64,000 bases of DNA from Myxococcales bacterium. GTDB taxonomy: Bacteria; Myxococcota_A; Polyangia; Polyangiales; Houyiibacteriaceae. The stretch covers positions 1 to 64,000 of the forward strand of contig JAOTVB010000017.1 of the NCBI GenBank assembly GCA_029863605.1, given 5' to 3'. Position numbers and translations under genes: made by a program. Every line of letters starts with the position of its first letter. Positions within the stretch are counted from its first letter, which is position 1. Positions 5,808-12,273 of this stretch are shown here, piece after piece. Under the pieces are notes generated by a model. It was not told the DNA's origin, made no database searches, and was given only the letters and a program-made list of their open reading frames with translations.

Positions 5808-7121
5808 GTGAAAAACGCGCGATGGCTCGACCTCGGTTCGGGAATTGGGCTCGTCGTCGCGAGCATGGTGGGCGCAGGCGTGTTTCTGAGCGCAGGCTTC
5901 ATGGCGCAAGAGCTCAGTGCAGGTTTGATTCTGGTCGCTTGGGGTGTCGGCGCCGTGCTCGCCATGGCCGGTGCGCGCACCTACGCCGAGGCGAGTGTGC
6001 TGATCCCGCGATCGGGCGGTGAGTACCGGTACCTATCCGAGCTGATTCATCCCGCGGTTGGCTACTTGGCTGGATGGGCATCGCTTCTAGTCGGTTTTGC
6101 CGCGCCAACGGCGATCAGCGCTTACGGAGCATCGGCGTTTGCGCAAACGGTCGTCGGTGCTGGGGACACGCGGTTGGGAGCCACCGCGTTGATCCTGGTG
6201 CTCACCTTGCTTCACGCAGCAGGACTTCGGCTTTCGAAGTGGACTCAGAACAGCCTGATCCTCGTCAATGCGATTCTCATCGTCGGATTCATCGCCGTCG
6301 GATTGTCCCTTGGCAGTCATGAGTGGCCGACGTGGGTGGCCCCGAACAGGACCGATGACTTTGTGGCGCTCCCGTTCGCAAGAAGCCTCTTCTTCGTGGC
6401 GTATGCGTTCTCAGGGTGGAATGCGGCGGCCTACGCTGCCGAGGAGTTCCACAATCCCGTGCGCGACGTACCGCGCGCGATGTTGATCGGCTGCGGTCTT
6501 GTAGGGATCCTCTACTTACTGGTGAACTGGGTGCTCGTCGCCAACCTCACCCCCGAGCAAGCCAAGATCGTCTTCCAGTACGAGGAGGCACGGGTCACGT
6601 TGGGTCACATCGTCGCGCAACAGTTCCTCGGTGGAGTCGGTTCGAGCATCATGTCCGTGGCGATTGCGATTGCCATGTTGTCGAGTATGAGCGCAATGCT
6701 CCTCGTTGGCCCCCGCGTGTACGCCGAAATGGCACGCGACGGGTTTCTTCCGTCTGTCCTGCGAGGTCAACCCGGCGCCCCGCCACGCACGTCGGTCTTC
6801 GTACAGGGCACGCTGGCGGTCATTCTGTTACATCTCCATTCGATCGGCGAGCTCCTCAGCAACGTTGCCGGTGTGCTCGTCCTGTTTTCTGCTCTCGTCG
6901 CGGTCGGCTTGTTCTTAGTGCGCCGACGACGGCCGCACCTTGCTTCCCCGAGGCCGCAGGCTTTGTTCGCTGCGTTCGTTTATGCGAGCTCGTCAGCGTG
7001 GATGCTTTACAGCGCTTTCAGAAGTCGCACCGGTTTGTTGCCGTGGCTCGGCGTGGTCGCTGTCGCTGGCCTCGGCGGTTACCTCGTCACCGAGCGGCGC
7101 CGGGGCCGCGCACGTACCTAA
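5808..7121 (+). CDS. APC-family amino acid permease
   Basis: Integral membrane transporter of 437 residues with about 12 hydrophobic segments. It shows the APC-superfamily start [15 protein letters not shown] in the first helix (unwound G-x-G type motif) and the conserved [19 protein letters not shown] after helix 2. The helix-6 region carries [25 protein letters not shown], typical of amino acid/polyamine permeases. The substrate cannot be read from the sequence. The GTG start is favoured because a -10 box lies 6 nt before it and no Shine-Dalgarno is visible. The last 4 bp overlap the convergent purL end. Confidence 0.88.
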
Positions 7122-9424
7122 CATGACTCCCCAGGCTGGTCGCCGACGATCGCGTCGAGCGCACTAGCATGCGCATGCGCAAGCGCCTCCACAGCAACCT
7201 CGCACACACCCTCGATGGCGAGGGTGTCACCTGTCACTTCACCGAGCGCCTCGAACGGGACCCCGAGGCGCTCGCACACCGAGAGCGCCTCGTCGACGTT
7301 GCCCGACGGGAGGCTCACGATGATCCGCGAGGGCTCTTCGCCGAAGAGCAAGGCATGGGCGGGCGCGTCTCCGCCGGCAGGAAGTGAGACGCGCGCCCCG
7401 TGGCCGTTTGCGATGCAGGCCTCCGCCAAACACATCGCAATGCCGCCGTCGCTGATATCATGAGCGCTCTCGACAAGTTGCCGTTGCGCAAGCTCGAGCA
7501 TGGCGTGCTGCAATGCGGCCTCGGCATCGAGATCGATGCCTACGGGAGCGCCGGTAACCGACCCCATCGTTTGCACGAGCCACTCCGAACCGCCCAGGAC
7601 GCCACGCGACGCCCGTCCGAGGTGCACGATGACATCGCCTTCGTTGAGGAATCCCAGTCCCAGTCGGTGAGCTGGGTCCTCGAGCTGGCCGACGACCGCG
7701 ACGGTGGGTGTCGGAAGGATCGATTTCCCGTCCGTCTCGTTGTAGAAGCTCACGTTTCCGGACACGACCGGAGCCCCGAGCGCCGTGCAGGCTGCCGCCA
7801 AGCCATCGATCGCCTGGGCAAAGCGCCACATCTGCTCGGGCACCTCTGGGTTTCCGAAGTTGAGACAGTCGGTCAGGCCGAGCGGCTTCGCTCCCACGCA
7901 CACGACGTTGCGCGTACACTCCGCGACTGCCATCGCTGCGCCGAAGAACGGATCGAGCTCGACGTGTCGTCCATTGCAATCAGCCGAAACCGCGAGGAAC
8001 TTTTCCCGAGTGCCATCGGCGTCCTGGCAAAAAACGCGAACGACCGCTGCGTCGCCGTCTCCGGGGCGTACGACCGTCCCGTCCCGGACGATGTGGTCGT
8101 ACTGCCTCCAAATCCATGACCTGCTTCCGATGTTTGGGGAACCGATCAGACGCACTATCTCTGCTCCGAGGTTGCTCGGCGCATCGTCGGTCATGGTGAC
8201 TACCGTTGCGGTTTCGGATCTCGGCTCCTGGGGGCGATCGTACTTGGGCGCGCAGTCGGTCAACAGATCGACAGGCAGATCGACGACCACAACGGGGTCA
8301 GGCTTGCTCGGAGCGTCGTCGAACGGATCGTAACCAGGCGTGGCTTTGCAGATGAAGCGGCTTGACGCCGTGACCCGGCCGACGATCGATGCGTCGAGAT
8401 CCCACTTGGCGCAAATGTCGAAGACCTCGTGCTCGCGGCCGCGTTTTGCCACCATGAGCATACGCTCCTGGGACTCGCTCAGGAGCATTTCGTAAGGACT
8501 CAGGGCACGGGTCCGCCTTGGGATCGCGTCGAGGTCGAGCTCGATGCCGTTGCCCGCGCGTGCGGCCATCTCGACCGACGAAGAGGTCAGCCCGGCGGCT
8601 CCCATGTCTTGCACCCCGGACAAACAGTCGGTCGCGAAGATCTCGAGGCAAGCCTCGAGAAGGAGCTTCTCCATGAAAGGATCGCCGACTTGGACCGTTG
8701 GAAGCTTGCTGTCGGTTTCCTCGCCGAACTCAGCGCTCGCCATCGTGGCGCCGTGAATGCCGTCGCGCCCGGTTTTTGCGCCGACATAGATGATCGGATT
8801 CCCGATACCCTCGGCCCTGCCGAAGAAGAGCTCGTCCGTTTTTGCGATTCCCACTGTGAAGGCGTTGACTAGAATGTTGCCGTCGTAGCTGGCATCGAAC
8901 TGCACTTCGCCACCCACCGTAGGCACGCCGATGCAGTTGCCATAGCCGCCGATCCCGGCGACGACGCCCTTCAGCAAGCGCGGCGTTTTTGGATGGTCAG
9001 CCCGCCCAAAACGAAGCGAGTTGAGTGACGCTACCGGGCGCGCGCCCATGGTGAACACGTCCCGAAGGATCCCGCCGACACCGGTCGCGGCGCCTTGATA
9101 GGGCTCGATGTAAGAAGGGTGGTTGTGTGACTCCATCTTGAACACTGCGCAGAACCCGTCGCCGATATCGACCGCACCCGCGTTCTCGCCAGGCCCCTGC
9201 ACGACTTGAGGACCTTCGGTGGGCAGTCGAGAGAGATGCACGCGAGACGACTTGTAGGAGCAGTGCTCGGACCACATCACGCTGATCACTCCGAGCTCGG
9301 CATAGCTCGGCTTGCGCGAAAGAGTGCTGAGAACGCGATCCCACTCGTCGTCGGCCAGGCCGAACTCGCGCGCGAGCTCGGGAGACACGTCCGGTTCGCC
9401 AGGGAAGTTCCTGGGTGTGGTCAT
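7118..9424 (-). CDS. purL: Phosphoribosylformylglycinamidine synthase subunit PurL
   Basis: Large subunit of FGAM synthase (purine step 4), which uses ATP and glutamine-derived ammonia delivered by PurQ. At 768 residues it is the small-type PurL, which needs PurQ and usually PurS. Motifs include [56 protein letters not shown] and [17 protein letters not shown]. It overlaps purQ by 4 bp on the same strand and lies last in a thiS-thiG-thiE-(S26-like)-purQ-purL array. No purS-like gene is visible beside it. Its product leads to AIR, the branch point to thiamine pyrimidine, which fits the thi neighbours. Confidence 0.96.
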
Positions 9425-10116
9425 TCGGCCCCCAAGTGGCGTCGCAGCGATTGAAAAAGACGCAGCCCATCGTCATTCCCGAGAATGGCTTCGCTGGCCC
9501 GTTCGGGGTGTGGCATCATTCCGAGCACGTTCTTGTCGCGGTTGTAGACGCCGGCGATGTCGTCGACGGCCCCGTTCGGATTGGCCGGACTACCTTCCGG
9601 CGCATCGCCGCGGCGCGTGCAGTAACGAAAGGCGACCTGGTCGTTGGCGTTGAGCTGCCCGAGCGTTTCCGAGCTGCATTGATACCGCCCATCGGCGTGG
9701 GCGATCGGAAGTCGCAATACCTGCCCCTGCCCCATGTCGGTGAAAGGACCTTCGTTTTCGACGCGGACGAAGATGTCCCGGCATTCGAACCGTAGATGCG
9801 CGTTGCGGGTGAGGGCGCCCGGCAGAAGGCCCATCTCGGTGAGCACTTGAAAGCCGTTGCAGATCCCGAGGATTGGGCCTCCGCGGTCGGCAAACTCTCG
9901 AATCGCGCTCACGATAGGGCTAAAGCGCGCGATCGCTCCTGCCCTTAGGTAATCTCCATACGAGAAACCTCCAGGGATCAGCACGGCGTCGGCTTCCCCA
10001 AACGAGGTCTCTTTGTGGAAGGCGTACCAGGCGTCGGCTCCGAGAACATCCCTCACGGCGTGAAGGGCGTCCCAGTCCGCATTAGAACCTGGAAATTGTA
10101 CGACAGCGACTCTCAT
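9421..10116 (-). CDS. purQ: Phosphoribosylformylglycinamidine synthase subunit PurQ (glutaminase)
   Basis: Class I glutamine amidotransferase subunit that feeds ammonia to PurL. It has 231 residues. The N-terminus [14 protein letters not shown] is typical, the nucleophile Cys lies in [20 protein letters not shown], and the His-Glu pair is in MMPHPERA near the C-terminus. It starts with ATG 72 bp after the S26-like gene, behind its own good promoter (10147-10175), and ends overlapping purL. Confidence 0.96.
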
Positions 10117-10188: not shown

Positions 10189-10815
10189 CTAGTGAACGAT
10201 CTCGAAATACCCGTGCGCGATCTCCGGCGCCAGCCCCTCGACGGGGGTCAACCGAAACACGATCGTGCCCCGACAGCTGCCTGCGTCGACCTGCCCATAC
10301 GCGCGGCTGTCCTGGCCCATGTAGCCGCGATAGTCGCCCAAGAGGTAAACCTTGCCGGGGTCGACGGTCGTCTTGCGGACCAAGTGCTGGCGGTTCTGGT
10401 CGAAGAAGATGTGGTGTTTGTCGCTGTCGCTGCGCTCGTTGCCCCAGATGACCGAGCGCTTCAGGCCGTTGTCGTCGTTGTAGAACTCGGTGGTGCCACG
10501 CTCCTCGAATTTCAACGGCCCGCCGTCGAGTCGAAGGACGTCGCCGAAGGACTCGATGACGTTCCCTTCGGTTGCCGCGACCCGGCCGACTACCCAGCCC
10601 TCTTCGGTCGGGTGCTTGCAGACGGCGATCGCGCCCGGCACCGGCTTGCCCCGTTTGTTGATCAGGACCCGCTCGCCGCGCACGAGGGTGGGGGCCATCC
10701 CGTTGTGCCCCATGGTGGCAACGTCAAACAGAAGTACCTTCAGCAGAAGCAACATGACGATGACCGCCGCGCCGATCCACGACAAACATCCGAGTCCGTT
10801 TCGCATCCGCCCCAC
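10189..10815 (-). CDS. Signal peptidase I-like (S26) protein lacking catalytic residues
   Basis: A 208-residue membrane-anchored protein with one N-terminal helix (residues ~12-32) and all S26 boxes in order. Box B reads HNGMAPTL where active enzymes have S-x-SM-x-PTL, so the nucleophile Ser is Gly39. Box D reads VVGRVAATEG where enzymes have I-KRV-GLPGD, so the general-base Lys is Gly77. Box E is retained as LLGDYRGYMGQDSR. The reading frame is otherwise intact. It is therefore probably not an active leader peptidase; a binding or regulatory role is only inference. It sits 8 bp after thiE. The GTG at 10815 or the ATG at 10806 may be the start. Confidence 0.75.
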   Translation of the reverse strand: MGRMRNGLGCLSWIGAAVIVMLLLLKVLLFDVATMGHNGMAPTLVRGERVLINKRGKPVPGAIAVCKHPTEEGWVVGRVAATEGNVIESFGDVLRLDGGPLKFEERGTTEFYNDDNGLKRSVIWGNERSDSDKHHIFFDQNRQHLVRKTTVDPGKVYLLGDYRGYMGQDSRAYGQVDAGSCRGTIVFRLTPVEGLAPEIAHGYFEIVH

Positions 10816-10823
10816 GACTTCGG

Positions 10824-11462
10824 CTATTCAACGTTTGCGTGGCTTTTGTCAAGTCTGCGGAGGAATCCGTCGATGACGACCGTCGGCTCCTCTGCATGAT
10901 AGACAGCGCGCCGAACGGCGACCCCGTGTGCGCCGGCCTCGAGGAGCGGGCTCACATCCTCCGGCCCGATGCCACCGAGTGCGAACACCGGAATCTGGAG
11001 GCCCGCGATCGCCCGCCGAAAACCGTCCACCCCGATCGGCGGATTCTTGCCGGGGACTTGGAACACGGGGCTCAGGAATGCATACGTGGCCCCAGCCTGT
11101 TGCGCGGCGACAAGGCCCGGGCGATCGTGCCGCGATACACCGATCATCTCGAGGCGCGGCCATCGTTGGCGGACGCGCGCGATCGGCAACCCGGTTTCCG
11201 GCAGGTGGACCCCGTCGGCGCCGATGATCTGAGCCACGTCGGCGCGCTGGTTCACCACCAAGGGACTTCCGCCCGGCGCAGTCAGCTCCCGTAGCTCGCG
11301 CCCCCAGTCGATCAGCTTTCGATCGGGGGCGTGTTTCGCGCGGAGCTGAATCCCGATCTCAGCACTCCCCCGACCATCGAGCGCTCGTCGCAAGGGAGCG
11401 ACCGGTCCGGCCCGGTGATCCGGGCTTGTGATGATCCAGATCCGCGGAAGCTCCCTCGGCAT
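10824..11462 (-). CDS. thiE: Thiamine phosphate synthase / TenI family protein
   Basis: TIM-barrel protein of 212 residues. ThiE joins HMP-PP with thiazole phosphate to give thiamine phosphate; TenI, the close paralogue, aromatises the thiazole. Visible motifs are IGIQLRAKHAPDRKL, VVNQRADVAQIIGADGVHLPE, the SRHD stretch, TYAFLSPVF and PVFALGGIGPEDV. Two points lean towards TenI: GVHLPE rather than GVHLGQ, and NQR instead of the usual NDR. The thiS-thiG context fits either. The gene symbol is therefore tentative. The gap to thiG is 13 bp. Confidence 0.75.
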   Translation of the reverse strand: MPRELPRIWIITSPDHRAGPVAPLRRALDGRGSAEIGIQLRAKHAPDRKLIDWGRELRELTAPGGSPLVVNQRADVAQIIGADGVHLPETGLPIARVRQRWPRLEMIGVSRHDRPGLVAAQQAGATYAFLSPVFQVPGKNPPIGVDGFRRAIAGLQIPVFALGGIGPEDVSPLLEAGAHGVAVRRAVYHAEEPTVVIDGFLRRLDKSHANVE

Positions 11463-11475
11463 CGATTATTCGTGG

Positions 11476-12273
11476 TTAGGATCGGCCGTCTTGGTCAGAG
11501 CCGATCACGCCTGCGATCGGGCTCGAGGCGGTAGCGTAAAGCTTTCGCTGGATTCGACCCGCGAGAAACGCATCGCGGCCCGCCTGCACGGCGAGCTTCA
11601 TCGCGCGCGCCATTCTCACCGGGTCCTTGGCGCCGGCGATCGCGGTGTTCATCAGAACCCCGTCGATCCCGAGCTCCATGGCGACCGCTGCGTCAGAGGC
11701 GGTGCCCACACCGGCGTCTACGATCACCGGGACGCCGGCGTGTTTTACGATGATTTCGATGTTGAATGGGTTGCGGACGCCGAGGCCGCTTCCGATCGGT
11801 GCGGCGAGCGGCATGACCGCCGCGCAGCCGAGGTCTTCGAGACGCCGCGCCGCGACCGGATCGTCATTGAAGTATGGCAGAACTGTGAATCCGTCATCGA
11901 CCAGGGCCTTGGCTGCCTCGATCGTTGCCGGCACATCTGGAAAGAGGGTTTTTTCGTCGCCGATGACCTCGAGCTTCACCAACGGCGTGTCGAGGAGCTC
12001 CCGAGCCAAGCGCGCCGTTCGAACCGCATCTTCGGAGGTATAACAGCCGGCGGTGTTGGGAAGCAGGGTGTAGCCGCCTTCCTGAAGCACCGACATGATC
12101 GACTCGCTACCCTTCGCCTTCAAGTCGACGCGGCGCACCGCCACGGTTACGACCTCACACCCTGACGCCTCGAGAGCTCCCCTCGCCGTATCGAGATCAG
12201 GATACTTGCCAGTGCCCGTAAACAGCCTTGACCGAAACTCGAACTGGTCGATCTTCAGGATGTCTTCCGGCAC
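11476..12273 (-). CDS. thiG: Thiazole synthase ThiG
   Basis: Builds the thiazole phosphate carboxylate of thiamine from deoxyxylulose-5-phosphate, dehydroglycine and ThiS thiocarboxylate. The 265-residue protein shows the ThiG hallmarks [22 protein letters not shown] at the N-terminus (split here only for citation), [31 protein letters not shown] with the Schiff-base Lys region, and [15 protein letters not shown] is the start, directly after the thiS TGA (TGAGTG), so translation is coupled. Confidence 0.96.

What the first reader, a model, noticed from the sequence alone, without database searches (positions are those of the whole stretch)
10189..10815. Catalytically dead signal peptidase I homologue inside the thi-pur operon
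All S26 boxes are recognisable and the frame is open, but the nucleophile Ser is Gly39 (HNGMAPTL) and the general-base Lys is Gly77 (VVGRV). Both changes remove the known Ser-Lys dyad of leader peptidase. Conservation of the rest, including LLGDYRGYMGQDSR, suggests selection for a non-proteolytic role. It lies between thiE and purQ.
Basis: partly seen in the sequence, partly recalled or inferred. Interest (0 to 1): 0.6.

Follow-up and report, generated by a model that had tools for sequence, protein, structure and literature searches.

The report
Disulfide-bearing dead signal peptidase of Myxococcota
A cousin of the enzyme that trims export tags off proteins has lost its cutting residues, gained a cysteine pair, and been kept for a long time in one class of myxobacteria, often beside protein-export genes or a secreted chaperone-like protein, so it probably binds exported proteins instead of cutting them.

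Summary
Window 10189-10815, minus strand, encodes a 208-aa signal peptidase I (S26) homologue with Gly39 at the Ser position and Gly77 at the Lys position. An intact lepB lies elsewhere in the genome. It is not a local mutation: 17 of 18 other genomes of the genus carry an orthologue, all with Gly at 39 and Gly or Ala at 77.

The defining feature differs from the one flagged. Of 141 distinct S26 sequences read, the 49 with Lys have neither Cys66 nor Cys181; of the 92 without Lys, 88 have both cysteines and 4 neither. The two-Cys group is one clade with those columns removed (support 95/93). Cys66 replaces a residue touching the catalytic Lys; the exported part has an even cysteine count in 88 of 88, suggesting a disulfide.

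The gene is often coupled to thiG-thiE and to a secreted YbjN-like gene; in one distant family the pair lies beside yajC-secD-secF. Most likely it is a membrane-anchored, non-proteolytic binder of export substrates. Dead signal peptidases are known (SipA, SpsA); this class-wide form with a partner looks new.

The parts
10189..10815 (-). Dead signal peptidase I homologue (called F0 here), 208 aa, GTG start at 10815
   Evidence: orthologues
10720..10785 (-). Codons of residues 11-32: single N-terminal membrane helix
   Evidence: sequence; helix 5-36 in the low-confidence model; topology inferred from the S26 fold
10705..10707 (-). His37 codon; aligned with the oxyanion-side residue two before the Ser position; H in 39 of 88 two-Cys sequences
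10699..10701 (-). Gly39 codon (GGG) at the place of the catalytic Ser
10618..10620 (-). Cys66 codon, invariant in the family; column of the GDIVVF-box Phe
10585..10587 (-). Gly77 codon at the place of the catalytic Lys
10303..10338 (-). Box E, GDYRGYMGQDSR (residues 160-171)
10273..10275 (-). Cys181 codon, invariant in the family
10824..11462 (-). thiE (TMP-TENI), directly upstream, 8-base gap
   Evidence: same order with a 12-96 base blast gap in 17 of 18 genus loci and 29 in the other
11476..12273 (-). thiG
9421..10116 (-). purQ, directly downstream
7118..9424 (-). purL

Best explanation
The gene encodes a membrane-anchored signal-peptidase-I-like pseudoprotease. SHOWN by sequence: the general-base Lys is absent throughout the family, the Ser is Gly in this genus, an intact lepB exists elsewhere, the rest is under purifying selection, and two cysteines (66 and 181) came with the loss of Lys. 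INFERRED: the two cysteines form a disulfide in the exported domain beside the vacated active site, fixing the fold and making proteolysis impossible. INFERRED: the retained peptide-binding fold holds signal peptides or other export-substrate segments at the outer face of the inner membrane without cutting them, much as proposed for SipA, and in many relatives passes them to a secreted YbjN/type-III-chaperone-like protein encoded by the next gene. In the window's genus the partner gene has been lost and the dead peptidase remains in the thiG-thiE-F0-purQ-purL row.
For: Residues: 141 distinct sequences; 49 with Lys77 have no Cys at 66 or 181; 92 without Lys split into 88 with both Cys and 4 with neither; none has just one. 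Even number of Cys after the membrane helix in 88 of 88 (54 with 2, 32 with 4, 2 with 6). Column 160, the place of E. coli Gly272 that must stay Gly beside Lys145 (stated in PMC4049620), is Gly in 49 of 49 Lys-bearing sequences but Ser, Ala or Asn in 43 of 88 two-Cys ones. Cys66 aligns with the Phe of the GNVVVF box of S. aureus SpsB; PMC11923149 states that E. [quoted passage not shown] that Phe133 is the same box residue is recalled). One clade with the trait columns removed, 95/93. dN/dS 0.09-0.18. Fold: profile match to solved SPases E 1.2e-14 and to SipA 2.3e-11; Foldseek of the poor model still finds SPases and SipA first. Context: of 26 genomes with F0 and a strong F3 match, F0-F3 are neighbours on one strand in 22, in two distant groups (f1/f3 and f20); F0-F3 is divergent to yajC-secD-secF in 5 of 11 f20 loci read.
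Against: No binding, expression or structural data. SipA itself showed no peptide binding in vitro (PMC4049620). F3 is missing in the window's own genus (0 of 10 genus genomes), so the partner is not needed there. The Sec neighbourhood is seen only in f20, and only in about half of its loci; in f12 the relatives lie instead by proB and an FHA gene (22 of 32 loci); thiG-thiE linkage says nothing about export. The disulfide is inferred; the model gave no distances. Four Lys-less relatives lack the Cys pair.
Confidence: 0.55

Rival explanations
1. It is a protease with a new catalytic set: Cys66 as nucleophile with His37 or His68 as base, in place of Ser-Lys.
For: Cys66, His37 are invariant and His68 nearly so in the 26-row alignment of the window's wider group; Cys66 lies in the column beside the old Lys.
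Against: His37 is kept in only 39 of 88 two-Cys sequences, and position 68 is Asp, Asn, Glu or Leu in others. The partner Cys181 is as invariant as Cys66, and the Cys count is even in 88 of 88, which fits a disulfide rather than a free nucleophile.
Confidence: 0.08
2. Cys66, Cys181, His37 and His68 bind a metal or haem; the protein is a metal carrier or sensor in the envelope.
For: Four potential ligands are co-conserved in the window's group.
Against: The two His are lost in most other families while both Cys stay. No neighbouring metal genes among those looked for, though the neighbours were not annotated in full. TIGR02754, the Ni-SOD maturation protease, scores 30.6 bits against a cut-off of 63.
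Confidence: 0.08
3. The protein is a regulator or stabiliser of the true signal peptidase or of the Sec exit site (for example a decoy that competes with LepB for precursors), with no client hand-over.
For: Lies beside yajC-secD-secF in 5 of 11 f20 loci; every genome checked for it (32 of 32) has a TIGR02227 match, mostly a stronger intact copy. Same residue, fold and context evidence as the best explanation.
Against: Does not account for the coupled secreted YbjN-like gene. No interaction data.
Confidence: 0.2
4. A decaying pseudogene or sequencing error.
For: Both catalytic residues are missing in the window copy.
Against: Open frame and no stops in 17 of 17 genus orthologues; dN/dS 0.09-0.18; the changes are shared across many families.
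Confidence: 0.01

Closest known systems
SipA of Streptococcus pyogenes (S26 homologue needed for pilus polymerisation; PMC4049620)
   Same: Signal peptidase fold (profile E 2.3e-11); Lys site is Gly; Ser site is not Ser (Asp); the Gly272-equivalent is relaxed (Asn140 in SipA); non-proteolytic binder proposed.
   Different: SipA belongs to a Gram-positive pilus/sortase cluster. The family here has an invariant Cys pair, is in Gram-negative Myxococcota, has no pilus or sortase gene among the neighbours looked at, and is linked to thiG-thiE, a secreted YbjN-like gene or yajC-secDF.
SpsA of Staphylococcus aureus (inactive SPase next to SpsB; PMC12445088 passages)
   Same: Lacks two conserved catalytic residues while a second, active SPase is present.
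   Different: Described there as dispensable; no Cys pair or partner gene is mentioned in the passages seen. Its sequence was not compared here.
Signal peptidase I / LepB (PF10502, TIGR02227)
   Same: Same family by profile, boxes B-E recognisable.
   Different: Ser and Lys of the dyad missing; Cys66/Cys181 present.
YbjN / AmyR family (PF10722; PMC5398634)
   Same: The partner gene F3 matches PF10722 weakly, above cut-off in 3 of 10 F3 proteins scanned. AmyR has a class I type III chaperone-like fold (abstract).
   Different: F3 begins with what looks like a signal peptide (by eye) and has a Cys pair spaced 7-10 residues. AmyR has no known secretion role.

Membership tests
S26 signal peptidase I fold family (PF10502) | Profile match over the curated cut-off | tested here: met
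   59.4 bits, cut-off 22.9
Active type I signal peptidase (LepB) | Nucleophile Ser in box B | tested here: not met
   Gly39 in the window and 17 of 17 genus orthologues
Active type I signal peptidase (LepB) | General base Lys in box D | tested here: not met
   Gly77; Lys in 0 of 88 two-Cys sequences, 49 of 49 control copies by definition of that group
Active type I signal peptidase (LepB) | Cleaves signal peptides | not testable with these tools
   needs an assay
Active type I signal peptidase (LepB) | N-terminal membrane anchor and box E GDxR...DSR | tested here: met
   hydrophobic residues 11-32 by eye, helix 5-36 in model; D161 87/88, R163 85/88, S170 88/88
SipA-type pilus factor | SPase fold without the dyad | tested here: met
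SipA-type pilus factor | Encoded with pilins and a sortase | tested here: not met
   neighbours in the window are thiG, thiE, purQ, purL
Ni-SOD maturation protease (TIGR02754) | Score over cut-off 63.25 | tested here: not met
   30.6 bits
Two-Cys Lys-less S26 clade defined here | Cys66 and Cys181, no Lys at 77, one clade | tested here: met
Two-Cys Lys-less S26 clade defined here | Cys66-Cys181 disulfide | not testable with these tools
   even Cys count supports it

The most novel reading that the evidence does not exclude
An ancient envelope module of one class of Myxococcota: a disulfide-locked, catalytically dead signal peptidase acts as a receptor or holdase for signal peptides at the Sec exit (SecDF-YajC) and hands emerging proteins to a dedicated secreted YbjN-fold chaperone. 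It would be a non-proteolytic step of protein export in Gram-negative bacteria.
Probability: 0.25. Interest if true: 0.75.

Novelty: new variant of a known kind. Interest (0 to 1): 0.5.

Why it matters
Annotation pipelines call this protein an active signal peptidase: it passes the TIGR02227 equivalog cut-off. It shows that loss of the catalytic base, followed by long conservation, happened in signal peptidases of Gram-negative bacteria and not only in the Gram-positive SipA and SpsA. The clean two-cysteine signature lets the family be recognised. The conserved neighbour F3 and the yajC-secDF setting give a direct route to test whether a dead peptidase serves in export.

Tried and rejected
Sequencing error, local mutation or pseudogene: rejected. 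Cys/His protease and metal site: considered, not excluded, made unlikely by the loss of the His residues elsewhere. L007 (Nonomuraea) looked like a chance match on inspection of its DNA and was dropped. Structure: AlphaFold2 with only four rows gave pLDDT 54 and no coordinates, so the Cys66-Cys181 distance could not be measured. Promoter and terminator scans gave nothing above shuffles, so the operon is inferred from spacing and conserved order only. The absence in G004 is uninformative: purQ is also not found there and only a 37% thiE match. That all Lys-less class members (33 rows, with L097, L102, L103, L157) form one clade is neither shown nor rejected (32% of bootstrap trees, p-AU 0.47); the quick tree had shown it. 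Rows left out: L025 (divergent C-terminus), L035, L036 and L037 were not put into A1; near-identical sequences were removed before the counts; not all matches were fetched and read. Of the other-class matches I read the sequences of 11 (L247-L256 and L258), none with both Cys. Paper searches for prior description: in a library of open-licence PMC papers only; none of the listings showed this family, which does not prove it is unpublished.

Full report
What is there. The minus strand of window 10189-10815 holds a 208-aa open frame (GTG start) between thiE and purQ in the row thiG-thiE-F0-purQ-purL. It matches Peptidase_S26 (59 bits, cut-off 22.9) and TIGR02227 signal peptidase I (61 bits, cut-off 47). 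The Ser place is Gly39 and the Lys place is Gly77. F0 starts 8 bases after the thiE stop. The own genome has a canonical lepB on another contig (G000:C17, GPSMEPT ... DIVKRV).

Orthologues. 17 of 18 other genomes of the genus have F0. The exception, G004, also lacks purQ and a close thiE in its assembly, so says nothing. All 17 have Gly at 39 and Gly or Ala at 77. In 18 of 18 genus loci (own included) thiE lies directly upstream and purQ downstream, same strand. Nine pairs chosen by me give dN/dS 0.09-0.18; for the window and its closest relative the neighbours give 0.27 (thiE) and 0.09 (purQ). The protein is under clear constraint.

The family. With a 26-row profile, 152 of 240 genomes of the class had a match at E 1e-10, a number that includes ordinary lepB. 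I fetched loci down the ranking and read 141 distinct S26 sequences. Lys is present at column 77 in 49; these have Ser at 39 in 49 of 49, Gly at 160 in 49 of 49, and no Cys at 66 or 181. Lys is absent in 92: 88 have both Cys66 and Cys181 and 4 have neither. The 88 have Gly (69), Ala (16) or Leu (3) at the Lys place, and Ser (41), Gly (35), Ala (11) or Thr (1) at the Ser place. So the shared features are the missing Lys and the Cys pair; Ser loss is later and partial, Gly being typical of the window's group. In a 23-row alignment at 37% mean identity the only invariant columns are P42, G47, C66, P69, G84, D169 and C181.

Why a disulfide. From residue 31 on, the number of Cys is even in 88 of 88 (2, 4 or 6). 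The part after the single N-terminal helix is expected outside the inner membrane, as in signal peptidases (established knowledge). Cys66 falls in the column of the Phe of the box GNVVVF of S. aureus SpsB, and Cys181 in the column of an Ile after box E (alignment). A paper states that E. coli Phe133 touches the Lys145 side chain (PMC11923149, passages); that Phe133 is this box residue is recalled. The SipA paper states that Gly272 is invariant because a side chain there would clash with Lys145, and is Asn in SipA (PMC4049620, section 8); the equivalent column here is Ser, Ala or Asn in 43 of 88 and Gly in all 49 Lys-bearing copies. The site has been remodelled in the way expected after loss of Lys.

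One origin. With columns 39, 66, 77 and 181 removed, 29 two-Cys rows form one side of a branch, ultrafast bootstrap 95 and SH-aLRT 93 (54 rows; 90 in the quick tree). Four Lys-less relatives without the Cys pair may be sisters; this is neither shown nor rejected (p-AU 0.47). Two of them (L103, L157) also lie behind thiG-thiE. In a sample of the phylum (282 genomes) every match of 168 bits or more, among those listed, is in the window's own class; the top other-class match has 107 bits, and 11 such sequences that I read lack both Cys. The family appears limited to this class in what was sampled; genomes outside the phylum were reached only by the pattern scan, which finds close relatives.

Neighbours. 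A second gene, F3, about 170-240 aa, with a likely signal peptide (by eye), a Cys pair spaced 7-10 residues in most of the 29 sequences read, and weak YbjN / type III chaperone-like matches, is present in 38 of 240 class genomes. Two of the 38 have only weak matches. Of 26 with a strong F3 match and F0, the two genes are neighbours on one strand, often overlapping, in 22; in G022 they are 3 kb apart, in G204 and G247 on different contigs, in G237 unresolved at a contig end. Ten genomes have F3 and no F0 (nine of family f5 and G031); in four of the five such loci that I read, F3 lies directly behind thiG-thiE. L126 shows thiG-thiE-F0-F3-purQ-purL, probably the older order; the window's genus has no F3 (0 of 10). 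In family f20, F0-F3 is divergent to yajC-secD-secF in 5 of 11 loci read (Pfam; order). In f12/f7, F0 relatives are followed on the same strand by an FHA/zinc-ribbon gene in 22 of 32 loci and often preceded by proB.

How it most likely works. Shown: no Lys, no Ser in this genus, conserved fold and Cys pair, strong constraint, recurrent gene partners. Inferred: a disulfide-locked, membrane-anchored, non-cutting binder of export substrates at the outer face of the inner membrane, working with F3 where F3 exists. The link to export rests on the fold, the f20 neighbourhood and the secreted partner; the link to thiamine genes looks like a stable operon position and not a functional clue. I put 0.55 on this reading and 0.2 on the related one that it acts on LepB or Sec itself.

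Compared with what is known. SipA of S. pyogenes and SpsA of S. aureus are dead signal peptidases (PMC4049620: abstract, sections 8 and first part of 12, passages; PMC12445088: passages). PMC4049620 also notes that Gram-positive genomes hold other SPase-like proteins without the dyad. The family here fails the membership test for an active signal peptidase and for a SipA-type pilus factor, while it may work like SipA. The Cys pair, the class-wide retention in Gram-negative bacteria and the YbjN-like partner did not appear in the searches listed. It is a new variant of a known kind.

Limits. All genomes but a few are unnamed here. The counts are of distinct sequences fetched, not of all genomes. 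The structure is unproven: the model was poor (pLDDT 54), although Foldseek still ranked signal peptidases and SipA first.

Noticed in passing
L118, L120, L121 (family f5), L122 (G031): The secreted YbjN-like gene F3 lies directly behind thiG-thiE although these genomes give no F0 match at E 1e-10; F0 seems lost while its partner stayed.
   Followed up: partly
L103/L261 (G174) and L157 (G037): Signal-peptidase-like genes behind thiG-thiE that lack Lys and Ser and also lack the Cys pair: perhaps an earlier stage or a parallel loss.
   Followed up: partly
window 10189-10815 and relatives: Dead copies pass the TIGR02227 equivalog cut-off, so they are likely to be annotated as active signal peptidase I.
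   Followed up: yes
L142, L145, L147, L150 and other f12 loci: The two-Cys relatives of f12 sit between proB and a gene with zinc ribbon and FHA domains, a different but recurrent neighbourhood.
   Followed up: partly
L118 3050-3343, L121 5095-5358: Small genes of about 90-100 aa, similar to each other by eye with lipoprotein-like starts, lie between thiG and F3 in f5 genomes.
   Followed up: no
L250 (G348), L252 (G372), L256 (G444), L257 (G053): Other Myxococcota S26 homologues without Lys (Val, Gly, Arg or Gln in its place) and without the Cys pair; loss of the base may have happened several times.
   Followed up: no
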